A DNA stretch of 9,097 bases from JBGPLH01 sp041486365 [NCBI: Thermodesulfobacteriota bacterium] (lineage in GTDB: Bacteria > JAUYMQ01), in the NCBI GenBank assembly GCA_041486365.1, contig JBGPLH010000112.1:1-9097 (forward strand). Reading direction: 5' to 3'. Position 1 is the stretch's first letter, and the number at the start of each line of letters is the position of its first letter. The notes beneath the pieces are model-generated. The model ran no database searches and was not told where the DNA came from. It worked only from the letters and a program-made list of their open reading frames with translations. Positions 110 through 9,028 of this stretch are shown here, one piece after another. The position numbers and the translations under genes were made by a program.

Positions 110-1351
110 TCACCGCCCCGCGCCGGGAAAACCGATCGCGACGAGCAGGGTGTCGTCGGTCGCGGGTCCGCGGCGGAAGGAATCGACGCCGGACACGAGC
201 AAGCCGCACAGGTCGGCGAGCGGCGAGCGGCCGTGCTCGACGAGAAGCTTCTCGAGGCGGTCCACTCCGTACAACGAGCCGCTCCCGTCACGCGCCTCCG
301 AGAGGCCGTCCGTGTAGAGCACGAGCCGGTCGCCCGCGTGCAGCGCGATCTCGCTCTCGTCGCCCGCCCCGCGAAGCTCCGGCTCGAGGCCAAGCACAGG
401 CGAGGCCGCGGCCAGCCGCTCCACGCTCCCCGACCCGGCACGCAGCAGGAGCGCCGGCGGATGCCCCGCGGAGGCCCAGGCGAGGCGGCGCTTCCCCAGA
501 TCGATCTTCCCCACGATCATCGTCATGTACATGCCGAGCTCGGCGAACTGCGCGTACACGAACCGGTTCATCGCGCGGATCGTCTCGGCCGGTGTGGCGC
601 GCTCCTGCTCCAGACGCACCAGCTCCATGTGCACGCGGTTGGCCATGCAGCTCGCCGCGATCCCGTGCCCCGTCACGTCGCAGACCGCGACGGAGATCTC
701 CTGTTCCCGCAGGTGCTGATGCGCGTAGTCGCCGCCGATCCCGATCATGGGCCGGTAGAACGTCTCGATCTCGACGTCGGAGCGCTTCACGGGGGGCGGG
801 ATCAGGCTCCGCTGCACCCGCTCGGCCAGCGCGAGATCCTGCTTCACCTGCTGGTGTGCATGGCGGAGTTCTTCGTTGGCCTCCTCCAGCTCGGCCGTGC
901 GAAGGCGGACCTTCTCCTCGAGCCGCTCGTTCGCCTCCCGGAGCTCCTCCAGGAGCCGCAGGTTCGCGCGCTGCAGATCGAAGGTCTCGATGGCACGCCG
1001 GACGTTGATCCGGAGGTCCTCGTCCTCCCAGGGCTTCGTGACGTAGCGGTAGACGCGGCCCGCGTTGATCGCCGCGATGGCGGACTCGATGTCGGTGTAC
1101 CCGGTGAGGACCATCCGGATGGCCTGGGGCCGGATGGCGATGCTCTTCTCGAGGAACTCGGCGCCGCTCATGCCGGGCATGCGCTGGTCGGCGATGATGA
1201 GCCCCACGTCCTCCTTCCGGAGGATCTCGAGGGCATCGGCGCCGCTGGAGGCGGTGAGGACCCGGTAATCGGGCTTGAAGGTGTACTCGAGGAGCTTGAG
1301 GATCGATATCTCGTCGTCCACGACGAGGATCGTGTGCTTCTCCGCCGTCAT
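110..1351 (-). CDS. Response regulator with PP2C-type (RsbU/SpoIIE) serine phosphatase output
   Basis: A cytoplasmic protein of 413 aa. Residues 7-125 form a receiver: acidic pair D12-D13, phospho-acceptor D55 in the segment I-I-A-D-Q-R-M-P-G, switch T83 and K106. Residues 126-180 are a heptad-rich coiled coil (L-R-L-L-E-E-L then E-E-K-V-R-L-R-T-A-E-L). Residues 181-408 are a PP2C/SpoIIE domain with metal-ligand candidates D208 (GGD), D225 (C-D-V-T-G-H-G), D348 (Y-T-D-G-L-S-E-A) and D399/D400 (A-T-D-D-T-L-L). The block after GGD reads Y-A-H-Q rather than the more usual aromatic-x-D. In this family the phosphatase dephosphorylates an STAS-domain anti-sigma antagonist, and receiver phosphorylation tunes the activity. 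The ATG at 1351 is chosen because the receiver begins four residues later and GGGAGAG stands about seven bases upstream. An in-frame ATG at 1435 would add 28 residues unlike any domain. It lies 93 bp after the kinase gene and immediately before the RsbW-like gene. Confidence 0.93.
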   Translation of the reverse strand: MTAEKHTILVVDDEISILKLLEYTFKPDYRVLTASSGADALEILRKEDVGLIIADQRMPGMSGAEFLEKSIAIRPQAIRMVLTGYTDIESAIAAINAGRVYRYVTKPWEDEDLRINVRRAIETFDLQRANLRLLEELREANERLEEKVRLRTAELEEANEELRHAHQQVKQDLALAERVQRSLIPPPVKRSDVEIETFYRPMIGIGGDYAHQHLREQEISVAVCDVTGHGIAASCMANRVHMELVRLEQERATPAETIRAMNRFVYAQFAELGMYMTMIVGKIDLGKRRLAWASAGHPPALLLRAGSGSVERLAAASPVLGLEPELRGAGDESEIALHAGDRLVLYTDGLSEARDGSGSLYGVDRLEKLLVEHGRSPLADLCGLLVSGVDSFRRGPATDDTLLVAIGFPGAGR

Positions 1352-1394
1352 CCCGCTCTCCCGGTCCGTGCCCTGTCCCGCGCGCCGAAAAGCG

Positions 1395-1430
1395 CCGTGA
1401 CACGGCATCATAGCGGTCCCGGCGGGACCG
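1395..1430. promoter_or_regulatory. Two operator-like dyads over the candidate promoter
   Basis: Two perfect inverted repeats lie close together. CGGTCCC (1414-1420) and GGGACCG (1424-1430), with a 3-bp centre, fill almost the whole 17-bp spacer of the candidate promoter. CCGTG-A-CACGG (1395-1405) is centred at 1400, the predicted transcription start. Neither is followed by a T-run on the minus strand, so they are not terminators. Their position over spacer and start site is typical of repressor operators. The binding protein is unknown. The half-sites CGGTCCC and CCGTG differ, so two proteins, or one operator plus a chance palindrome, are possible. Confidence 0.4.
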
Positions 1431-1435
1431 GGCAA
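1407..1435 (-). promoter_or_regulatory. Candidate sigma70-type promoter of the receiver-phosphatase gene
   Basis: Read on the minus strand, TTGCCC (1435-1430) and TATGAT (1412-1407) are separated by exactly 17 bp. They match the -35 and -10 consensus at 4/6 and 5/6. The predicted start falls near 1400, giving a leader of about 50 nt before the ATG at 1351. The site sits in the 93-bp gap after the kinase gene. No terminator is visible there, so this would be an internal promoter inside an operon. It is a sequence match only. Confidence 0.5.
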
Positions 1436-1444
1436 GGCAGGTGA

Positions 1445-3319
1445 TCAGCGGGCGCGGGGTCCCAGGGGAAGCTCTACAACGAAGGTGCTCCCCTGCCCGA
1501 GGACACTCTCGACGCGAATGATCCCCCCGTGCTTCTCCACGATGCCGTGGCTCACGGAGAGGCCAAGCCCCGTCCCCTTCCCGACGGGCTTCGTCGTGAA
1601 GAAGGGGTCGAAGACCCGCTTCACCTTATCGGGCGGGATGCCGCTGCCCGTGTCCCGGACCGCCACGGAGACCCGGGGCTCCCCGTCCGGGCCGGGGGTC
1701 ACGGACGTGGTCACGTGGATCTCCCCCTCGCCCCCGTTCTCGACGATCGCGTCGATCGCGTTCCCGAGAAGGTTCATGAACACCTGGTTCAACTGTCCCG
1801 GGTAGCAGGCGATCAGGGGGAGATCACCGTAGTGGCGGTGCACCTTGATCCGCTCGCCGAGGCGGTGGTGCAGGAGATGAAGCGTGCTCTCGATCCCCGC
1901 GTGCAGGTCCGCGTCCTTGAACTCGGCCTCATCCAGCCGGCTGAAGGTGCGGAGATCGGCCACGATGTTCTTGGTGCGGAGCGCCCCCTCCTTGCAGCGC
2001 GAGAGCATGTCCTCGACCTCGGAGAAGATCTCCTCGTCGACCGCCTCGCCGCGCGCGAGCGACTCGCGGAGCGCGTCCAGGCGCCGCCCCACGTGGCCGA
2101 GGAAGCCATAGACGATGCTGATGGGGTTGTTCAGCTCGTGCGCCACCCCGGCCACGAGCTGGCCGAGGCTCGCCATCTTCTCCGACTGGATGAGCTGCGA
2201 TTCCTTGCGCTGTACTTCCTCGAGCGCATCCGCCAGGCGGTCCTTCTGCTCAGCCACCTCCCAGTACAGCATCGACTGCCGGATCGCGACGGACACCTGG
2301 TCCGCGATCGCCTGCACGAAGTCCTTCTCCTCCTCCGTCCACGCGTGCGGGGTGTTGACGTACAGCGACAGGGTGCCGAGGAAATCCTCCTTATAGAAGA
2401 GCGGGACCAGCATGAGGGAGCGAACGCCGTGGATGACCTCGATGAACCGGGGGTCGGTCACCGTGACCCGCCTCGTCATCGGGTCGTTCTCCACGTCGTC
2501 CACGGCGTAGGGACGGCGCGTGCCCAGCATGTGCAGCATGGCCGGATCGTTTTGGCCCAGGCGCGGAAGCGTCGCGCCGAGGGCCGAGAGCAACCCGGGC
2601 GCCGCGTACTCGTGATCGATCCGCATGCTCCCCTCGTCCGTGCTCGCCGACAGCACCAGGAAGCAACGGTCAGCCCCGAGGGCTCGGCCCACCTGCTCCA
2701 CCGTGGTCTGGAGCACGCGGTCGAGATCGAGGTGACCGCGGATCGCGCCGGTGATCAGATTGATCATCGACTCGCGGCCCAGCGTCCGCTCGAGCTCGAG
2801 CGTGCGCTGCTTGACCAGCGCCTCGAGCATGTCGGCCTTCGCCTGGACCCGTTCGAGGTCCTGCTTCCGGACGCGGGCGCTCACGTGGAGCGTGAGGGCG
2901 AGAAGGATCTTGTAGGAGAGCGGGCTGCGCTGCGCGATCAGCTCCTTCATGAGCACCCGATCGAGCCGCAGCAGTTCGGCGTCGGTGTCGGCGATGACCG
3001 AGGCCGTGCGCGTGCGTCCCTCCAGGACGGCCAGCTCGCCGAACAGAGCGCCCCGGCCGAGCTCCGCGACGGGAATCTCGTTCCCGTCGGCCAGGCGCAC
3101 GATGCGAACTTTCCCGGAACCGACGATGTAGAGCGAATCGCCGGCGTCTCCCTCCCGGATGATCACCTCCCCCGCCCGGAAGCGGACGGCCTCCACCAGG
3201 CCTGCGAGCTGGCGCAGGTCCGGGTCACAGAGCGCGAGGTCGGGATCGATGGTGGCGGGAACGACATCGCCCACCCCCAGCGTGCCGCGAAGCACCTCGT
3301 ATCGGGCATCGAGATCCAT
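1445..3319 (-). CDS. Soluble sensor histidine kinase with cyclic-nucleotide-binding and GAF domains
   Basis: 624 aa with no membrane segment. Residues 33-150 form a cyclic-nucleotide-binding (Crp/PKA-type) domain. Its phosphate-binding cassette F-G-E-L-A ... R-T-R-T-A-S aligns with the PKA cassette without gaps, leaving the ribose-binding Glu (E95) and phosphate-binding Arg (R104) in place. Residues 150-185 are a coiled coil and about 190-350 a GAF domain (D-R-C-F-L-V-L ... L-M-L-V-P-L-F ... L-G-T-L-S-L-Y). A second coiled coil (355-383) leads into the HisKA H-box G-V-A-H-E-L-N-N-P with phospho-acceptor H394. The HATPase has its N-box around N519, G1 D-T-G-S-G-I-P (556-562), F-box F-D-P-F-F-T-T-K (570-577) and G2 G-K-G-T-G-L-G-L (580-587). 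All catalytic motifs are intact. The ATG at 3319 has AAGGGAGCG upstream. A start at 3430 would add 37 low-complexity Arg/Pro residues and would place the start inside the upstream terminator. Likely partners are the two similar receivers in this window. Confidence 0.93.
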   Translation of the reverse strand: MDLDARYEVLRGTLGVGDVVPATIDPDLALCDPDLRQLAGLVEAVRFRAGEVIIREGDAGDSLYIVGSGKVRIVRLADGNEIPVAELGRGALFGELAVLEGRTRTASVIADTDAELLRLDRVLMKELIAQRSPLSYKILLALTLHVSARVRKQDLERVQAKADMLEALVKQRTLELERTLGRESMINLITGAIRGHLDLDRVLQTTVEQVGRALGADRCFLVLSASTDEGSMRIDHEYAAPGLLSALGATLPRLGQNDPAMLHMLGTRRPYAVDDVENDPMTRRVTVTDPRFIEVIHGVRSLMLVPLFYKEDFLGTLSLYVNTPHAWTEEEKDFVQAIADQVSVAIRQSMLYWEVAEQKDRLADALEEVQRKESQLIQSEKMASLGQLVAGVAHELNNPISIVYGFLGHVGRRLDALRESLARGEAVDEEIFSEVEDMLSRCKEGALRTKNIVADLRTFSRLDEAEFKDADLHAGIESTLHLLHHRLGERIKVHRHYGDLPLIACYPGQLNQVFMNLLGNAIDAIVENGGEGEIHVTTSVTPGPDGEPRVSVAVRDTGSGIPPDKVKRVFDPFFTTKPVGKGTGLGLSVSHGIVEKHGGIIRVESVLGQGSTFVVELPLGPRAR

Positions 3320-3381
3320 GGTGCGCTCCCTTCGGCCGCGGGGGGCCGGGCGCGGCGGGCGCCGGCCGGCCGCCGGTGACC

Positions 3382-3387
3382 ATTCTA
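3382..3387 (-). promoter_or_regulatory. Weak -10-like element upstream of the histidine kinase gene
   Basis: The minus strand reads TAGAAT (3387-3382), 5/6 to the -10 consensus, about 60 bp before the kinase start and just downstream of an intrinsic terminator, so the kinase gene should need a promoter here. No convincing -35 box stands 16-18 bp further upstream. The only TTGACA-like hexamer, TTCACA, is 12 bp away, which is too close. An alternative sigma factor or an activator-dependent promoter is possible. Confidence 0.25.
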
Positions 3388-3412
3388 CGCGAACCGGCGT
3401 GTGAAGCAGGCG

Positions 3413-3449
3413 GAAAAATGGCCCGAGCACGGGGGGACGTGCTCGGGCC
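3413..3449 (-). terminator. Strong intrinsic terminator ahead of the kinase gene
   Basis: A perfect 12-bp inverted repeat, GGCCCGAGCACG (3420-3431) against CGTGCTCGGGCC (3438-3449), encloses a 6-nt loop. On the minus strand it is followed at once by ATTTTTCC (3419-3412). A GC-rich stem with a direct U-run is the textbook rho-independent layout. It would stop transcripts coming from the small gene at 3860-3669 before they reach the kinase gene. There is no T-run on the plus side, so the orientation is clear. Confidence 0.85.
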
Positions 3450-3496
3450 GTGGGATGGCCGACGGACGGACGGGTCTTTCGGCCAGGACCGGAGGT

Positions 3497-3513
3497 CCCG
3501 AGCGAAGCTCGGG
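3497..3513. repeat. 7-bp perfect hairpin sharing its arm sequence with the terminator
   Basis: CCCGAGC (3497-3503), a GAA centre and GCTCGGG (3507-3513) form a tight stem-loop. The same 7-mers occur in the terminator stem about 60 bp downstream on the minus strand. The second arm of this hairpin can therefore also pair with the first arm of the terminator, giving mutually exclusive structures. Confidence 0.6.
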
Positions 3514-3543
3514 CCGACCAGTTTCAGAATGATATGGAGTCCG

Positions 3544-3599
3544 GGAAACGCGGCGGAACGAACTCACCGTTGGTACCCCCTGCGCCCCGCCGCGTTTCC
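3544..3599. repeat. 13-bp perfect inverted repeat with a 30-nt loop
   Basis: GGAAACGCGGCGG (3544-3556) pairs without mismatch with CCGCCGCGTTTCC (3587-3599). The 30-nt loop contains AACG (3557-3560) and CGTT (3568-3571), which can form a small internal stem, and a GGTACC palindrome (3572-3577). There is no T-run next to the minus-strand exit, so it is not a terminator. It may be an RNA stem of the small transcript, protecting its 3' part or serving as a protein-binding site. Confidence 0.6.
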
Positions 3600-3668
3600 T
3601 TCCGACCCAGCGACCTGAAAGCCCATTGGGAAGGGCCGCCGGGCCTGAGAGGGCCTTGCGAGACGGAC

Positions 3669-3860
3669 TTACAGGGGCTGCCGCCGGGCCTCGTACCGCT
3701 CCCTCGCCCGAAGATCCACCAGGTCGTGAAGCGATCCGAAGAGCCTGGAGAGCGAGATCCCCGTGGAGGCATTCGCACACCGGTTCCGCATCCGCGATCC
3801 CGACCTGCGCGCCGCCGGCCTCGTCATCATCGACTGTATCGTCATGGCCTGTCCGTTCAT
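3669..3860 (-). CDS. Small basic protein of 63 aa behind a sigma54 promoter; function unknown
   Basis: An ORF from ATG 3860 to TAA 3669. The start is supported by a strong ribosome binding site, AGGGAGGG, with about eight bases between GGAGG and the ATG. The predicted sigma54 start point is only about 25 nt upstream of the ATG, so promoter, leader and start codon fit together. The product is Arg-rich. Its first half is low in hydrophobic residues (M-T-R-P-A-A-R-R ... R-M-R-N-R); its second half looks like an amphipathic helix (S-L-S-R-L-F-G-S-L-H-D-L-V-D-L-R-A-R-E-R-Y-E). A single Cys is present (C28). There is no signal peptide, membrane segment or recognisable domain. It could be a small regulatory or nucleic-acid-binding protein, or a short translated leader of an RNA whose function lies in its 3' structure. 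Codon choice is mostly GC-ending but not decisive. Confidence 0.6.
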   Translation of the reverse strand: MNGQAMTIQSMMTRPAARRSGSRMRNRCANASTGISLSRLFGSLHDLVDLRARERYEARRQPL

Positions 3861-3896
3861 CGTTTGACCCTCCCTGCCGGTGTTGACTTCGGGTAG

Positions 3897-3912
3897 AGCA
3901 AGGGACGTGCCA
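3897..3912 (-). promoter_or_regulatory. Full-consensus sigma54 (RpoN) promoter
   Basis: The minus strand reads TGGCACG (3912-3906), TCCC, TTGCT (3901-3897), which fits the -24/-12 consensus TGGCACR-N4-TTGCW at every defined position, with correct GG-to-GC spacing. Counting from the -12 C at 3898, transcription should start near 3886. That leaves a leader of about 25 nt carrying a strong ribosome binding site before the ATG at 3860. It was the only such site found in the intergenic DNA when both strands were read by eye. sigma54 promoters need an AAA+ activator, and one with an intact GAFTGA loop is encoded at 7526-9028. Confidence 0.85.
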
Positions 3913-3921
3913 AACGAGCGG

Positions 3922-3974
3922 AGAAAGAAAACCGGCCCGCGGCGCGGCTCTTTTTCGAGGCCGCACGCGGGCCG
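3922..3974 (-). terminator. Intrinsic terminator of the paralogue cluster
   Basis: CGGCCCGCG (3933-3941) pairs perfectly with CGCGGGCCG (3966-3974). The stem continues for 4 bp after a small internal mismatch and closes over a T-rich loop (3948-3960). On the minus strand the stem is followed by TTTTCTTTCT (3931-3922). It lies about 80 bp after the stop codon of the third paralogue and just before the sigma54 promoter, so it separates the two transcription units. Confidence 0.75.
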
Positions 3975-3982
3975 AGCCCCAT

Positions 3983-4033
3983 CGTGCTCGAATCGGCATG
4001 CTGGGGAGCACCGCTCATGCCGCGAGCGGCACG
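3983..4033. promoter_or_regulatory. Nested dyads at an enhancer position for the sigma54 promoter
   Basis: CGGCATG (3994-4000) and CATGCCG (4016-4022) form a perfect inverted repeat with half-site centres 22 bp apart, two helical turns. They are flanked by CGTGC (3983-3987) and GCACG (4029-4033) in the same symmetry. Overlapping alternative dyads are GTGCTC (3984-3989)/GAGCAC (4006-4011) and TGCT-N4-AGCA (3999-4010). The block is centred near 4008, about 120 bp upstream of the predicted sigma54 start at 3886, a usual distance for bacterial enhancer-binding proteins. It also lies in the 3' untranslated part of the third paralogue, so an RNA structure is the alternative. Confidence 0.4.
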
Positions 4034-4051
4034 GTCCCGGCGCGCCCTCCC

Positions 4052-4957
4052 TCAGAACTTCAGGCTGATCACCGGCAGGAGGAAGCCCTGCTCCTTCACA
4101 TCCGTCGTCGAGCCGTCATCGGCCGTGAACTTGTAGTAGCCCTGCTTCAGGCCGTTCATGCACACGTCCCACTCGCCGGAGGAATCCGACGTGTCGGAGA
4201 AGTTGAAAGGACCCCCCAGGCCCTCGGCCACGAGGTTCACCTGCGTGTTCGCCGGCGCCCATCCAAACAGACAGGCCGTCGTGCGCGCGTCGTTCTCCTC
4301 GGGGACGCGGTAGCTGCCCCCGATGATTCCCCCGATCGAGAGCTTCGGGCCGACCGCGGGAGGCGTGAAAAAGATGAGCTTGTCCTCGACCTTGGGGAAT
4401 AGCTGCACCGACATTTTCGTTGGGAACCGGTCGAAGCGATCCGTCTGGGCATTGAAGCGCTCGACCGACAGGCGCTGGCGGCTGACCGTCGACCGCAGAG
4501 AATCAGTGAACGCGATCGGAGCCCCCATGAACCACGCCCTGATTTGCTCATCGGTGCAGCTCCCGAGGCCGCGAAACAGGACCACGTTGCTCGGGTTCAC
4601 GTTGAAGCTCTGCAGGTTCGTGTGGATCGAATTGATGACCGCGCCCTGCGCGTTGCCGTACTGCACAACCGCGCCCGAGGTGAGGACGTTGACGTCCTCG
4701 ATCGCGCCCGCGAAGCCGCCCTCCGGCACGACGTCGTCGATGAGAATGAGGCCTTCCCGGTGGTTTTCCTGGATGCCCCGCACCTGGGTCCTGAAGTTGC
4801 TCAGGTCGGTGCGGATCAAGCTGGATAGCTCCTGGTCGGTGAGGGCTCCCGTGTTCGTGCTGAAGGTGGGGAGCGCGATCAGGGCGACCGCGCCGATGAG
4901 GAGGGTCTTCCAGAGCAGACTGCGGCCCGCGGGTGGCCGCGGAGAGGGAGGTCGCAT
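4052..4957 (-). CDS. Exported protein of a tandem paralogue family, third copy; function unknown
   Basis: 301 aa. An n-region of Pro/Arg (M-R-P-P-S-P-R-P-P-A-G-R) precedes a hydrophobic segment (14-30) ending A-L-P-T-F-S-T, a Sec signal peptide or N-terminal anchor. Residues 40-155 look mainly helical. A middle segment shared with the other copies follows (L-S-V-E-R-F ... L-F-P-K-V-E-D-K-L-I-F-F, about 163-197). The C-terminal part (209-280) resembles a bacterial Ig-like fold: I-G-G-S-Y-R, then N-L-V-A-E-G-L-G-G-P-F-N, then G-Y-Y-K-F-T-A-D-D-G. C229 and C266 are conserved in all three copies and could form a disulfide; C134 is shared with the second copy only. The protein ends in Phe. AAGGAGAC precedes the ATG by five bases. 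The gene starts 17 bp after the second copy, so the two are cotranscribed. Envelope or extracellular location is inferred. No enzyme motif is visible. Confidence 0.85.
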   Translation of the reverse strand: MRPPSPRPPAGRSLLWKTLLIGAVALIALPTFSTNTGALTDQELSSLIRTDLSNFRTQVRGIQENHREGLILIDDVVPEGGFAGAIEDVNVLTSGAVVQYGNAQGAVINSIHTNLQSFNVNPSNVVLFRGLGSCTDEQIRAWFMGAPIAFTDSLRSTVSRQRLSVERFNAQTDRFDRFPTKMSVQLFPKVEDKLIFFTPPAVGPKLSIGGIIGGSYRVPEENDARTTACLFGWAPANTQVNLVAEGLGGPFNFSDTSDSSGEWDVCMNGLKQGYYKFTADDGSTTDVKEQGFLLPVISLKF

Positions 4958-4974
4958 CGGGTCTCCTTGACCGT

Positions 4975-5877
4975 TCAGAACGTGGACCGAAGTGCGCGCG
5001 CGAAACCCTGCTCGACGTCGTCGCTGCGCGATCCGTCCGTGGCGGTGAACTTGTAGTACCCCTGATTGAGACCGATCAGGCAGAGATCCCAGTTCCCGTT
5101 CGAGTCGGCCGTGTCGCTGCCGTTGAAGGGGCCGCCGAGCCCCTCGGCTGTGACATTGATGCTGGCGCCCGCCGCCGAGGTTCCGAACACGCAGGCGGTG
5201 GTATTGGCGTCGTTCTCGTTGAGCCGGGTGTAGGAGCCGCCCAGCAACTCCGCGATCCGGACCCGACTACCACCCCCCGAAAAGCTCGAGTCGGTGAAAA
5301 TCAGGCGATCCCTGGGGTTCGGGAACACCTGCGAGGAGAACGACAGCGGCACCCTGACGAACTCGGCCGGCACGACATCGAAATACTCGACGCTGATCTT
5401 GGGACGCCGGAGCGTCATCGCGAGCCACTTGTCGAAGCTCGTCGGCTCGCCCCAGAGCCAGGCCTCGATCAACCTGTCCGTGCAGCCCCCCATGCCCCGG
5501 AGCTGCTGGGGGTCGTCCGAGCTCACGCCGTACATGTCGATCGCATCCCGGACATCACAGAGCGCATCCTTGTAACCATCGTTGTACGCGTCGAGCGCGT
5601 TGTATCCGGCCTGGCCGATCTGGCCGACGAGGTTGGAGACGTTCACCTCGTTGACCACCCTCGGCAGCTCGCGGATCTGATTGGACACCTCGCCCCTGAT
5701 CACGCCGACGGATTGCGCGAACTCGCCCGAGATGGACTGAAGCTGCACGCGCAGGAGGACCTGGTTATCGAGGCCGGTGCTGAAGGTGGGAAGCGCGAAG
5801 AATGCCACGACGGCGATGAGAAGGGTTTTCCAGAGCAGACGGCGGCCGGCGCGGGGCCGCTGCGAGGGGGGTCGCAT
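4975..5877 (-). CDS. Exported protein of a tandem paralogue family, second copy; function unknown
   Basis: 300 aa, closest to the third copy: both have L-L-W-K-T-L-L-I and A-L-P-T-F-S-T in the signal region, and a G-C-T-D or S-C-T-D motif near residue 132. Residues 35-115 look like long amphipathic helices (V-Q-L-Q-S-I-S-G-E-F ... G-Q-I-G-Q-A-G-Y-N-A-L). The middle segment (161-195) reads I-S-V-E-Y-F-D-V ... Q-V-F-P-N-P-R-D-R-L-I-F-T-D. The Ig-like tail holds A-E-G-L-G-G-P-F-N-G-S-D-T-A-D (244-258), C229 and C266. An extra Cys (C107) makes four cysteines, so two disulfides are possible here. The last residue is Phe. The ATG is preceded by GGAGGATTCC, a good ribosome binding site. The 89-bp gap to the first copy holds a direct repeat of CGCCGGTT but no clear terminator, so one operon is likely. 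Not recognised as a named family. Confidence 0.85.
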   Translation of the reverse strand: MRPPSQRPRAGRRLLWKTLLIAVVAFFALPTFSTGLDNQVLLRVQLQSISGEFAQSVGVIRGEVSNQIRELPRVVNEVNVSNLVGQIGQAGYNALDAYNDGYKDALCDVRDAIDMYGVSSDDPQQLRGMGGCTDRLIEAWLWGEPTSFDKWLAMTLRRPKISVEYFDVVPAEFVRVPLSFSSQVFPNPRDRLIFTDSSFSGGGSRVRIAELLGGSYTRLNENDANTTACVFGTSAAGASINVTAEGLGGPFNGSDTADSNGNWDLCLIGLNQGYYKFTATDGSRSDDVEQGFARALRSTF

Positions 5878-5966
5878 GGAATCCTCCGTTGAAAAGCCGT
5901 ACTCTTGGATCCCGCGCCGGTTCTTTCGCCCGGGCGGGGTACGCCGGTTGCCTTGAACGGGCGGCG

Positions 5967-6857
5967 CTAGAACTTGAACTTCGGCTGGAGGAACCGGAAA
6001 CCCTGCTCGTGGGTTTCCGTGCTGCTGCCGTCATCGGCCTCGAACTTGTAGTTGCCGTACTTGAGCGTCAGACAGACGTCCCATTTCCCGTTCAGATCGG
6101 CCGTATCGGACCCGTTGAAGGGTCCGCCCAGTCCCTCCGCCGTCACGTCCACGTTCGCGCTGGGTAGAGCTAGTCCGAAGACGCAGGCCCTGCTCGTGGC
6201 ATCAGGGTCACCCGCGAAGGCGTAGCTGCCTCCCACGATTCCGCCCACGCGGAGATTCCCCGCGCCCCCGCCCATCATTCCCGGATCCGTGAACAGGAGC
6301 CTGTCACTCGTCGTGGTGAAGACCTGCGCCGACATGATGACTGGGCTGCGGATGAACCTGTCCTGCAGGACGTCGAACCGCTCGACGTTCAACCGGGTTC
6401 CGCGCAGGGACATCGCAAGCGACTTCTTGAAGCCCACGGGCGCCGTCCAGAGGATATTCTCCGCGATGGCGTCGGCATCCGTTCCCACGCCCCGGAGCTG
6501 GCTCGCGGACAGGGGATCCAGCCCGGTGTTCTGCACGAGATTGTCGATCCCATTGAGCGTGTTCTGGTAGGCGATATTGAAGTCGAAGTAGGCGTTGTAG
6601 CCGATGTCCCCGATAGCCTCGATCGTGGCGTTGAAGCCGGCCTCCGGGACGGTTTTGGGAACCGCCACGAGATCCACCCTCACGTTCGACTGGATCTCCC
6701 GCGCCTCGAACTGGAAGTCGCCGATGAGCGCCTGAATGCCGCCGATGAGCGGATCGCTTCCCTTTCCGGCGCCGGGGGTGGGGAACGCGAGAGATACGAG
6801 CAGGATGACGATGAGCAGACCGCGGCCGACGAGGGGCCGCGAAGCGGGGGGTCGCAT
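5967..6857 (-). CDS. Exported protein of a tandem paralogue family, first copy; function unknown
   Basis: 296 aa, the most divergent of the three. M-R-P-P-A-S-R-P-L-V-G-R precedes a hydrophobic core (G-L-L-I-V-I-L-L-V-S-L-A-F) and P-T-P-G-A-G-K-G, consistent with a cleavable Sec signal. It lacks the L-L-W-K-T block and the middle Cys (G-V-G-T-D replaces G-C-T-D near 125). It keeps Q-L-R-G (120-123), L-N-V-E-R-F-D-V (156-163), D-R-L-L-F-T-D (185-191), the Ig-like tail A-E-G-L-G-G-P-F-N-G-S-D-T-A-D (240-254) and the Cys pair C225/C262. It ends K-F-K-F. GGAGGAACCT stands before the ATG. It is the first gene of the cluster, after a candidate terminator and a leader hairpin. Shared architecture points to gene duplication followed by divergence. 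Structural, adhesive or binding roles are all conceivable; none is shown. Confidence 0.85.
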   Translation of the reverse strand: MRPPASRPLVGRGLLIVILLVSLAFPTPGAGKGSDPLIGGIQALIGDFQFEAREIQSNVRVDLVAVPKTVPEAGFNATIEAIGDIGYNAYFDFNIAYQNTLNGIDNLVQNTGLDPLSASQLRGVGTDADAIAENILWTAPVGFKKSLAMSLRGTRLNVERFDVLQDRFIRSPVIMSAQVFTTTSDRLLFTDPGMMGGGAGNLRVGGIVGGSYAFAGDPDATSRACVFGLALPSANVDVTAEGLGGPFNGSDTADLNGKWDVCLTLKYGNYKFEADDGSSTETHEQGFRFLQPKFKF

Positions 6858-6897: not shown

Positions 6898-6940
6898 GTG
6901 AGGGGTCATGCGTCTTGGGCCACCCACCCCCTTCATAGAT

Positions 6941-6992
6941 GAAAACCCGAAGCCCGCGCAAGGCATCCCCCCGCGCGGCGCTCCAGGTTTTC
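6941..6992 (-). terminator. Candidate intrinsic terminator after the iron-permease-like gene
   Basis: An outer stem GAAAACC (6941-6947)/GGTTTTC (6986-6992) encloses an inner stem CCGCGC (6954-6959)/GCGCGG (6973-6978). Read on the minus strand, this is an A-run, a GC-rich stem and GGGTTTTC. The T-run is separated from the inner stem by several bases, so the fit is imperfect. It lies 23 bp after the stop codon at 7015 and probably separates the regulator/permease pair from the paralogue cluster. The symmetry would also allow action in the other direction. Confidence 0.5.
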
Positions 6993-7014
6993 GGCCACGG
7001 CCCTGTCCCCAAGG

Positions 7015-7473
7015 TCAGAGCTTCTCGATCTCCACGGTCGTCTTGCCGCCCCGCCGGAGCTTCCTCGCGTCCTGGACGAGCCTCAGGAACCGCAGGTGCA
7101 GCTCCTCCAGATCGTCCTCGGAGAAGTCCTCGATCGAGATCAGGCGGTTACTCGCCCCCTCGGTGGAGGCGATCAGCTCGTTCAGCTTGAGCTGAACCGC
7201 CCGCGACTCCTTGTTCTGCGTGTGCTGGATGAGGAAGACCATGAGGAAGGTGAGAATGGTGGTCCCCGTGTTGATGACGAGCTGCCAGGTGTCCGAGAAG
7301 CGAAAGATCGGCCCGGTCAGCGCCCACGCGAGCACGACCAGGACGGCTATGCCGAAGCCCCAGGCGGACCCGGTGGCGCCGGCCGTTCTTCCGGCGAGGT
7401 GATCGAACCATCCCTTCAGGCCCGCGTAGGGCGACCGCCTTCGCAGCTTCACCGTGTCCATCAGCTTCATCAC
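7015..7473 (-). CDS. Low-affinity iron permease family membrane protein
   Basis: 152 aa with two hydrophobic helices (about 37-57 and 63-83). The second runs into the characteristic segment I-L-T-F-L-M-V-F-L-I-Q-H-T-Q-N (73-87), followed by R-A-V-Q-L-K-L-N-E-L-I (91-101). This pattern and length are typical of the bacterial low-affinity iron permease family (Pfam Iron_permease), small relatives of yeast Fet4. Iron transport by the bacterial members is inferred from that similarity and is not firmly established. The C-terminal 50 residues are cytoplasmic and charged (F-S-E-D-D-L-E-E-L-H-L-R-F-L). The start is ATG 7473 or the adjacent ATG 7470; both follow GGGAGGGG. The gene starts 52 bp after the NtrC-like gene with no terminator between them, so the two are probably cotranscribed. 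Confidence 0.88.
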   Translation of the reverse strand: MMKLMDTVKLRRRSPYAGLKGWFDHLAGRTAGATGSAWGFGIAVLVVLAWALTGPIFRFSDTWQLVINTGTTILTFLMVFLIQHTQNKESRAVQLKLNELIASTEGASNRLISIEDFSEDDLEELHLRFLRLVQDARKLRRGGKTTVEIEKL

Positions 7474-7525: not shown

Positions 7526-9028
7526 TCACCTATCCCGATCGGTGATCCCGTAGCGCTTGAGCTTCTCCATGAACGGGCGGAGCGAGATCCCGAGGGCGCG
7601 GGCTGTGCGCGTGCGGTTCCAGCCGTGGCGCTCGAGCTCGCGGAGGATCAGGGCGCGCTCATAGGCCTGCATCCGCTCCCGGAGAGTCGCCCCTTCCCCT
7701 TCCGCCGGATTCCCCGCGGCGGGGAGCGCGCCTTCCGCCGGGCCGGGCCGCGGGGCCTCGGCGCCCGCTGAGACGATCTTCTCGGAGAGGAGATCGGGGG
7801 TGATCGGCTCCCCCGGCGACAGGAGCGTGACGGCGCGCTCGATCTCGTGCTCGAGCTCGCGGACGTTGCCGGGAAAGCGGTACGCCTGCAGGCGGTCGAG
7901 AGCGTCGGCGGTGATTCCGGTCACGATCTTCTTCGCCCGGCGCGCGTACTTGTGCAGGAAGTGATCGACCAGGAGCGGCACGTCTTCCATGCGCTCGCGC
8001 AGCGGCGGCATGCGGATGGGGAAGACATGGAGGCGGTAGTAGAGATCCTCCCGGAAGCGTCCCGACCTCACCGCCTCCTCCAGGTCGCGGTTCGTGGCGG
8101 AAATGACGCGCACGTCCACCTTGCGGACGGACGTGTCACCCACGCGCTTGATCTCGCCCTCCTGCAGCACGCGCAGCAGCCCCGCCTGGAGCGCGGGCGG
8201 CATGTCGCCGATCTCGTCGAGGAAGATCGTCCCGCCGTCGGCCACTTCGAAGAGCCCCTTCTTCTCCTCCACGGCGCCGGTGAACGCGCCCTTGCGGTGG
8301 CCGAAGAGCTCGCTCTCGAGCAGGCTCTCCGAGAGCGACGCGCAGTTCTGCGCGACGAAGAGCCGCCCGCGGCGCGGGCTGTTGTAGTGAATCGCCCGGG
8401 CGACGATCTCCTTTCCCGTGCCGGTCTCCCCCGTGATCAGCACCGTGGTGGGCGAATCGATCACGCGCGTGAGGAGATCGAAGACGCGCTGCATCGCGGG
8501 GGAGCGCCCGATGATCTGATCGAAGCCGTAGAGGCTCTCGACCTCCCGCTTCAACTCCACGTTCTCGCGCACGAGCCGCGCGTTGAGCTGCCGCAGCTCC
8601 TCCGCGAGTCGCCGGTTGGCCTCCTCGAGATCGTGGGTCTCCAGCGCGCGCTTCACCTTCTGGCGTATCTCGGTCTCCTCCCAGGGCTTCGTGAGGTAGA
8701 GGTAGACCTTCCCGTTGTTGATCGCCTCGATGGCCGAGCCCATGTCGCTGTAGCCGGTGAGGATCATGCGGATGGCGTGGGGGCGCAACGCGATGCTCCG
8801 CTCGAGGAGCTCGGAGCCGGTCATGCCGGGCATCCGCTGGTCGGCCAGGATCAGGGCCACGTCCCGATCGCGGAGGATCCCGAGGGCCTCCTCGCCGCTC
8901 CCCGCGGTGAGGACCTCGTACTCGTCCTTGAAGGTGTACTCGATGAGCTTGAGGATGTCGGGCTCGTCGTCGACGACGAGGATCCGATGGGGCTCAACCG
9001 GGGCGGGTGCCGGCACGGCGCGCTCCAT
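7526..9028 (-). CDS. NtrC-family sigma54-dependent response regulator
   Basis: 500 aa. Receiver 14-130: D20/D21, phospho-acceptor D63 in I-L-A-D-Q-R-M-P-G, switch T91, K114. A coiled-coil linker follows (133-165). The AAA+ sigma54-interaction domain (about 170-400) has Walker A G-E-T-G-T-G-K-E (200-207), the sigma54-contacting loop G-A-F-T-G-A (247-252), Walker B G-T-I-F-L-D-E (266-272), R-F-R-E-D-L-Y-Y-R-L (324-333) and F-P-G-N-V-R-E-L (385-392). A Pro/Ala/Gly-rich linker (421-447) leads to a Fis-type HTH (about 453-495). The recognition helix reads I-S-L-R-P-F-M-E-K-L, with a Pro where relatives usually have Thr. The protein should hydrolyse ATP to open sigma54-RNA polymerase complexes when phosphorylated. 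The intergenic sigma54 promoter at 3897-3912 is a natural candidate target. No Shine-Dalgarno sequence precedes the ATG, but no better start exists in frame. Confidence 0.95.
   Translation of the reverse strand: MERAVPAPAPVEPHRILVVDDEPDILKLIEYTFKDEYEVLTAGSGEEALGILRDRDVALILADQRMPGMTGSELLERSIALRPHAIRMILTGYSDMGSAIEAINNGKVYLYLTKPWEETEIRQKVKRALETHDLEEANRRLAEELRQLNARLVRENVELKREVESLYGFDQIIGRSPAMQRVFDLLTRVIDSPTTVLITGETGTGKEIVARAIHYNSPRRGRLFVAQNCASLSESLLESELFGHRKGAFTGAVEEKKGLFEVADGGTIFLDEIGDMPPALQAGLLRVLQEGEIKRVGDTSVRKVDVRVISATNRDLEEAVRSGRFREDLYYRLHVFPIRMPPLRERMEDVPLLVDHFLHKYARRAKKIVTGITADALDRLQAYRFPGNVRELEHEIERAVTLLSPGEPITPDLLSEKIVSAGAEAPRPGPAEGALPAAGNPAEGEGATLRERMQAYERALILRELERHGWNRTRTARALGISLRPFMEKLKRYGITDRDR

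What the first reader, a model, noticed from the sequence alone, without database searches (positions are those of the whole stretch)
3413..3912. Self-contained sigma54-driven small gene or RNA, from promoter to terminator
A full-consensus -24/-12 promoter (3897-3912), a correctly spaced start point, a strong ribosome binding site, a 63-codon ORF, a hairpin-rich 3' region and a 12-bp-stem intrinsic terminator follow one another in under 500 bp, bounded upstream by another terminator. This is a complete transcription unit that standard annotation would probably miss or fill with a spurious longer ORF. The product is unrecognised and may be a small basic protein, a regulatory RNA, or both.
Basis: partly seen in the sequence, partly recalled or inferred. 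Interest (0 to 1): 0.8.

Follow-up and report, generated by a model that had tools for sequence, protein, structure and literature searches.

The report
Sigma54-driven structured small RNA unit
A short stretch between genes in an unidentified GC-rich bacterium has a textbook nitrogen-type (sigma54) start signal, a strongly folded RNA end and a clean stop signal, so it probably makes a small regulatory RNA, while the small protein suggested for it is doubtful and no relatives were found to test either.

Summary
The anatomy is real. On the minus strand an exact TTGGCACG-N4-TTGCT promoter (3913-3897; 0.0003 expected per window) is followed by a GGAGG/ATG pair, a 63-codon ORF (3860-3669), a hairpin chain and a perfect 12-bp terminator (3449-3420); another terminator lies upstream (about 3974-3922). 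The halves differ: the 3' half (3413-3668) folds far better than shuffles (z -5.2; -2.96 without the terminator), the 5' half does not (+0.76). The ORF's codon signal is weak (0.118 per codon; 44-codon stretches reach that in 116 of 2000 shuffles), while the overlapping plus-strand frame 3730-3861 scores like the window's genes (0.396; 0 of 2000) but lacks a start, so the ORF may partly be a gene remnant's shadow. My searches (Rfam, Pfam, NCBIfam, PHROGs, PDB, plasmids, phage DNA, IMG/VR) gave no accepted relative of unit or peptides. No genome is held for the window, so conservation, the decisive test, could not be examined. Best reading: a free-standing sigma54-dependent regulatory RNA working like Pxr, GlmY or CrcZ, possibly with an early-translated ORF: a new, unproven member of a known kind.

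The parts
3897..3913 (-). exact -24/-12 (sigma54) promoter TTGGCACGTCCCTTGCT; predicted +1 about 3886
3984..4031 (.). cluster of four short dyads (arms 6-7), about -98 to -145 from the predicted start; possible activator-binding region
   Evidence: four or more such dyads in 3.25% of simulated sequences; the longest arm alone is unremarkable (23.5%)
3922..3974 (-). intrinsic terminator of the upstream gene 4052-4957, insulating the unit
   Evidence: 3915-3985 folds at -40.7 kcal/mol
3868..3874 (-). Shine-Dalgarno-like GGGAGGG, 7 nt before the ATG
   Evidence: predicted mean unpaired 0.64-0.70 in the first 60-100 nt of RNA, 0.15-0.33 at 150-218 nt, 0.00-0.01 from 260 nt on
3669..3860 (-). 63-codon ORF; doubtful protein; C-terminal helix 37-60 predicted
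3730..3867 (+). coding-like frame of 45 codons plus TGA, preceded by a stop (3727-3729), no ATG at its 5' end; possible gene remnant
3647..3653 (-). CCCUCUC predicted to pair with the SD (3874-3868)
   Evidence: pair probabilities 0.68-1.0; SD as closed in 4% of 150 randomised downstream sequences
3604..3645 (-). hairpin 1 of the 3' domain (12-bp outer stem)
3544..3599 (-). hairpin 2, long GC-rich stem with perfect 13-bp outer arms
   Evidence: pair probabilities 0.97-1.0
3488..3522 (-). hairpin 3
3456..3485 (-). hairpin 4
3413..3449 (-). intrinsic terminator: 12-bp perfect stem 3449-3420 plus U run
1445..3319 (-). downstream gene: cNMP-binding / GAF / HisKA / HATPase sensor kinase
7526..9028 (-). 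NtrC-type sigma54-activating response regulator (candidate activator; link not shown)
   Evidence: Response_reg, Sigma54_activat, HTH_8

Best explanation
A free-standing transcription unit for a small regulatory RNA of about 440-475 nt. Sigma54 polymerase sits at 3897-3913 and is opened by a phosphorylated NtrC-type activator bound upstream (inferred; perhaps the regulator encoded at 7526-9028). Transcription runs from about 3886 to the terminator at 3420-3449. The product ends in a chain of stable hairpins (3413-3668), which is probably the stable, functional part and acts on mRNAs or an RNA-binding protein (inferred). The 63-codon ORF may be translated briefly from the nascent RNA, before its SD is closed by the rest of the transcript, but it is not needed for this reading. 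Shown: promoter, terminators, ORF, predicted structure. Inferred: transcription, activator, target, stability.
For: Exact promoter far beyond chance. Terminators on both sides in the right orientation. 3' half z -5.2, and -2.96 without the terminator, against +0.76 for the 5' half. Weak codon signal of the 63-aa ORF. NtrC-type activator and kinase genes nearby. Precedents for the layout in passages read: pxr, glmY, crcZ/crcY.
Against: No homologue found and no Rfam match, so no covariation. The structure is not unique in the window: after GC correction 3 of 139 segments of 256 nt are as low, this region and two others, one of them inside the kinase gene. The plus strand of the same 3' region folds nearly as well (z -4.69). 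The SD/ATG placement argues for translation. The activator is unknown, and the dyads upstream are only weakly unusual.
Confidence: 0.5

Rival explanations
1. A sigma54-controlled small-protein gene: the 63-aa basic protein is the product, and the hairpins are a 3' UTR.
For: GGAGG plus ATG 26 nt after the predicted start with a long ORF arises in 0.245% of simulated sequences. AlphaFold on the single sequence gives a confident C-terminal helix, residues 37-60. All three thirds score above zero (0.18, 0.139, 0.033), and in the last one (3672-3734) the plus frame that shares its wobble positions is poor. GC3 is 0.86.
Against: Codon score 0.118 over 63 codons; some 44-codon stretch reaches that in 116 of 2000 shuffles (a comparison slightly hard on the longer ORF). 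Over the shared 44 codons the minus frame scores 0.076 against 0.396 for the plus frame, whereas in 210 of 210 overlapping windows of the seven genes the sense frame wins. Synonymous usage cannot decide: 16% of sense windows score as low and 36% of shadow windows as high. No accepted match in Pfam, NCBIfam, PHROGs or PDB and none in IMG/VR or plasmids. The N-terminal half has low model confidence.
Confidence: 0.2
2. An untranslated leader with an attenuator: the sigma54 promoter serves the downstream kinase (and SpoIIE-type regulator) genes, and the 3449-3420 hairpin is a conditional terminator.
For: The kinase starts about 94 nt after the U run on the same strand. The scan found no sigma70-like promoter in 3000-4500. 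Hairpin 3 and the terminator share GGCCCGAGC, so alternative pairings exist.
Against: The alternative duplexes (-15.7 and -19.5 kcal/mol) are weaker than the two hairpins they would replace (-21.9 and -27.4), and the terminator pairs at probability 0.96-1.0. By a hand estimate, from no call, about 0.3 such 9-nt repeats are expected by chance at this GC content. A TAGAAT -10-like box before the kinase (read by eye) could serve it.
Confidence: 0.12
3. No functional unit: gene debris. The plus strand carries the end of a decayed gene (3730-3867), the minus ORF is its shadow, and promoter or hairpins are leftovers or chance.
For: The plus frame 3730-3861 scores 0.396, like the window's genes, and 0 of 2000 shuffles reach it. 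It has no plausible start. It shows a faint resemblance to the RNase E/G motif.
Against: The exact promoter and its placement relative to SD, ATG and terminators. A remnant of one gene does not explain the 3' hairpin chain. The plus peptide has no accepted family.
Confidence: 0.16

Closest known systems
Pxr small RNA of Myxococcus xanthus (PMC5568312; passages seen)
   Same: Intergenic, appears to be transcribed from its own sigma54 promoter, in all homologs examined there located next to the gene of a sigma54-dependent response regulator (nla19), predicted to fold into several stem-loops.
   Different: Pxr is about 108 nt and has a known developmental role. This unit is about 4 times longer, carries an ORF, and the sigma54 regulator gene is about 3.6 kb away. 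Homology was not tested directly.
GlmY small RNA of Escherichia coli (PMC7073468; passages seen)
   Same: Sigma54 promoter controlled by a two-component system with an activating response regulator (QseE/QseF).
   Different: GlmY has an overlapping sigma70 promoter and a known partner, RapZ. None of this is known here, and no Rfam family matches.
CrcZ/CrcY small RNAs of Pseudomonas (PMC8657755; passages seen)
   Same: RpoN-dependent non-coding RNAs activated by an NtrC-family regulator (CbrB).
   Different: They act by sequestering Hfq/Crc. That was not tested here.
RNA released from the 3' UTR of the glutamine synthetase mRNA (PMC9731577; listing and start of abstract seen)
   Same: General layout of an ORF followed by a 3' part that yields a small RNA.
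   Different: A large, well-known enzyme gene; here the ORF is short and doubtful. That glnA is sigma54-driven is recalled, not read.

Membership tests
sigma54-dependent promoter | GG at -24 and GC at -12 in TTGGCACG-N4-TTGCW (consensus recalled) | tested here: met
   exact match
sigma54-dependent promoter | activator (enhancer-binding protein) site upstream | tested here: inconclusive
   dyad cluster at 3984-4031, 3.25% of simulated sequences have as many; activator unknown
sigma54-dependent promoter | RpoN-dependent transcription | not testable with these tools
   no expression data
bacterial small regulatory RNA | own promoter and intrinsic terminator in an intergenic region | tested here: met
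   as sequence features:
bacterial small regulatory RNA | more stable fold than shuffled sequence | tested here: met
   3' half z -5.2, whole z -3.18; but 5' half +0.76 and plus strand of the 3' half -4.69
bacterial small regulatory RNA | conserved or covarying structure in relatives | not testable with these tools
   no relatives found
families held in Rfam 15 | covariance-model score above the gathering cut-off | tested here: not met
   0 matches in the whole window; 9 sub-threshold matches at 3350-4080, best by bits BjrC80 at 3414-3524, 23.4 bits against a cut-off of 80, E 0.028
protein-coding gene (63 aa) | codon usage like neighbouring genes and better than the opposite strand | tested here: not met
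   0.118 per codon against 0.315-0.459 for the seven window genes on which the model was trained (left-out windows mean 0.38, 5th percentile 0.085); opposite frame 0.396
protein-coding gene (63 aa) | ribosome binding site and start codon | tested here: met
protein-coding gene (63 aa) | homologues or dN/dS below 1 | not testable with these tools
   no homologues found
RNase E/G remnant (plus strand 3730-3867) | match to RNase E/G profile PF10150 | tested here: not met
   no Pfam match at E up to 10 (with HMMER's filters); 5.0 bits with a local profile, 1 of 5000 shuffles as high, but the family was picked after seeing a hit

The most novel reading that the evidence does not exclude
A dual-function sigma54 transcript of an unplaced lineage. 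A short basic peptide is made only from the nascent RNA, until the growing transcript (finally 3647-3653) closes its Shine-Dalgarno, and the hairpin chain then acts as a regulatory RNA. Its 5' half arose antisense to a gene fragment resembling the most conserved RNase E/G motif, and it could pair with the host's own RNase E mRNA.
Probability: 0.04. Interest if true: 0.7.

Novelty: new member of a known kind. Interest (0 to 1): 0.36.

Why it matters
Sigma54-controlled small RNAs link two-component signalling to post-transcriptional control, but the examples read or recalled here come from cultured Pseudomonadota and myxobacteria. If real, this would add one from an unplaced, GC-rich lineage, sitting among a sensor kinase, a SpoIIE-type regulator and an NtrC-type activator. 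It is also a caution: a good promoter, SD and ORF can coexist with a better coding signal on the other strand.

Tried and rejected
Relatives. In those 80 loci and L081, tblastn of the 63-aa, the 45-aa and the first paralogue gave nothing better than E 0.15. The profile of the three paralogues was searched in 98 + 144 + 395 + 245 + 294 = 1176 genomes of five groups reachable through those loci: 1 weak match (E 4.9e-4, 20 bits), taken as chance and not examined further beyond that tblastn; these groups may simply not include the window's phylum. Of 11 genomes, 11 hold kinase matches, best 51% identity in the kinase domain; the sigma54 activator at E <= 1e-120 rang in 0 of 12 (a strict limit that shows little). 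One search was made to see which control genomes exist. IMG/VR: no confirmed relative of the 63-aa peptide or of the paralogue profile. Phages: no DNA match. Plasmids: six records with short DNA hits at E 0.02-0.05, no protein hits.

Anti-RNase E idea: followed because the Shinella plasmid hit reads as an RNase E/G motif (the name of the motif is my recognition, the plasmid stretch is unannotated). With profiles from 3 and then 17 of the 20 fetched RNase E/G loci the plus peptide scores 4.6 and 5.0 bits, with 1 of 5000 shuffles and 0 of 686 other window peptides as high each time. The family was chosen after the fact, Pfam does not report it, and other hits over the same stretch lie in unrelated genes (the Frondihabitans one partly in a hypothetical gene; a Paracoccus one under lnt), so it is kept only as a lead. 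BLAST hits in loci L055, L046 and L060 were looked at and set aside as chance.

Attenuation by hairpin 3 / terminator exchange: energetically poor. GGA motifs (CsrA-type RNAs): 13 against 8.5 expected, not pursued. Runx and PHROG matches of the 63-aa peptide (E 0.029, 0.095, 0.13) are below or without cut-offs and taken as chance. The 208-, 148-, 84-, 80- and 53-codon ORFs over the region have negative codon scores.

Full report
What was checked. The window is 9097 bases, 67% GC. No genome is held for it. Its seven clear genes lie on the minus strand: a response regulator with SpoIIE phosphatase domain (110-1351), a cNMP/GAF histidine kinase (1445-3319), three paralogous proteins of unknown family (4052-4957, 4975-5877, 5967-6857), a low-affinity iron permease family protein (7015-7473) and an NtrC-type sigma54 activator (7526-9028). 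The finding lies in the gap 3320-4051.

Promoter. TTGGCACGTCCCTTGCT at 3913-3897 (-) has no mismatch; the only other site within three mismatches has three. 3000 simulated windows give 0.00033 exact matches and 0.008 core matches per window. Counting from the -12 position, the start is about 3886. The segment 3976-4052, between the upstream terminator and the upstream gene, holds four short dyads at about -98 to -145. Simulated sequence has four or more in 3.25% of cases, but the longest arm (7) is ordinary (23.5%). This fits an activator site without proving one.

Boundaries. The terminator 3449-3420 has a perfect 12-bp stem, a 6-nt loop and a U run and forms at probability 0.96-1.0 in the full transcript. 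A second one (about 3974-3933, T-rich tail to 3922, -40.7 kcal/mol for 3915-3985) closes the upstream gene. The unit is therefore insulated on both sides, as far as sequence tells.

Two different halves. The whole transcript folds at z -3.18 (1 of 100 shuffles as good). The signal is in the 3' half: 3413-3668 has z -5.2 (0 of 200) and 3452-3668, without the terminator, z -2.96 (1 of 200). The 5' half 3669-3886 has z +0.76 (152 of 200). Two cautions: the plus strand of the 3' half has z -4.69, and after GC correction 3 of 139 segments of the window are as low: one overlaps this region, the others start at 6913 and at 2625, the latter inside the kinase gene.

The ORF. It begins 26 nt after the predicted start behind a GGAGG. 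Such an arrangement with at least 50 open codons arises in 0.245% of simulated sequences (0.9-4.7% with looser rules). Its codon score is 0.118 per codon, against 0.315-0.459 for the seven genes the model was trained on and a mean of 0.38 for left-out windows of them. Some 44-codon stretch in some frame reaches 0.118 in 116 of 2000 shuffles of the gap. The frame on the opposite strand that shares its wobble positions, 3730-3861, scores 0.396, never reached in the 2000 shuffles. In 210 overlapping windows of the genes the true frame always beat its shadow. Over the same 44 codons the minus frame has 0.076. By this measure the coding signal belongs to the plus strand for the first two thirds of the ORF. 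In the last third (3672-3734) the minus frame has 0.18 and the plus frame is poor and stopped. Synonymous choice alone does not decide. The plus frame has no ATG at its 5' end and is preceded by a stop, so it looks like a remnant rather than a gene. AlphaFold on the single 63-aa sequence gives mean pLDDT 71, pTM 0.36, with one helix, 37-60.

Possible self-limiting translation. In nascent RNA of 60-100 nt the SD is mostly open (mean unpaired 0.64-0.70). It is already mostly paired at 150 and 218 nt (0.15, 0.33), before 3647-3653 is made, and fully closed from 260 nt on (0.00-0.01); in the full transcript its partner is 3647-3653. With randomised downstream sequence it is as closed in 4% of 150 trials. 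This is suggestive only.

Homology. Rfam: none above a cut-off. The 63-aa and 45-aa peptides have no accepted match in Pfam, NCBIfam, PHROGs or PDB and none in plasmids by tblastn; the 63-aa peptide has none in IMG/VR; the 45-aa peptide was not searched there. DNA: none in phages, six records with short hits in plasmids at E 0.02-0.05. One of these is what I recognise as the RNase E/G catalytic motif of Shinella, read antisense. The plus peptide aligns to that motif with gaps at 5.0 bits, 1 of 5000 shuffles as high, but the family was chosen after the hit. I keep it as a lead.

Comparison with known systems. Passages of three papers show the same logic elsewhere: pxr, which appears to be transcribed from a sigma54 promoter next to a sigma54-dependent regulator gene (PMC5568312); glmY from a sigma54 promoter under a two-component system (PMC7073468); crcZ/crcY from RpoN-dependent promoters under CbrAB (PMC8657755). 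The present unit works like these on paper. It is not shown to be a homologue of any, and it is longer than Pxr. Literature searches for sigma54-driven small ORFs and for dual-function RNAs with RpoN returned two papers and one, none read beyond the listing; some searches were the other searches.

Verdict. Its reading holds in part: a sigma54 transcription unit is likely, a structured RNA product more likely than the 63-aa protein. Everything hangs on relatives or transcript data that were not available, so the interest is moderate.

Noticed in passing
window 4052-6857 (-): Three tandem paralogues (41-42% identity to the first) with a conserved start and a conserved EGLGGPFN...DT.D motif; no accepted family in Pfam or NCBIfam for the first, low-confidence helical-plus-strand model without a PDB match at E<=0.001.
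   Followed up: partly
window 6941-7000 (-): The lowest-energy of the 60-nt segments sampled every 20 nt on the minus strand (-40.9 kcal/mol), in the gap between the permease gene and the third paralogue; perhaps a terminator or a second structured element.
   Followed up: no
window 110-3319 and 7526-9028 (-): Two response regulators with receiver domains but different outputs (SpoIIE phosphatase; sigma54 activator) lie on either side of the unit together with a cNMP/GAF kinase, suggesting one signalling island.
   Followed up: no
window 3789-3847: Five of the six plasmid records with DNA hits match here; the Shinella one encodes what looks like the RNase E/G motif on the opposite strand.
   Followed up: yes
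window 3384-3390 (-): TAGAAT box upstream of the kinase start that could be a -10 element of its own promoter (read by eye); no good -35.
   Followed up: no
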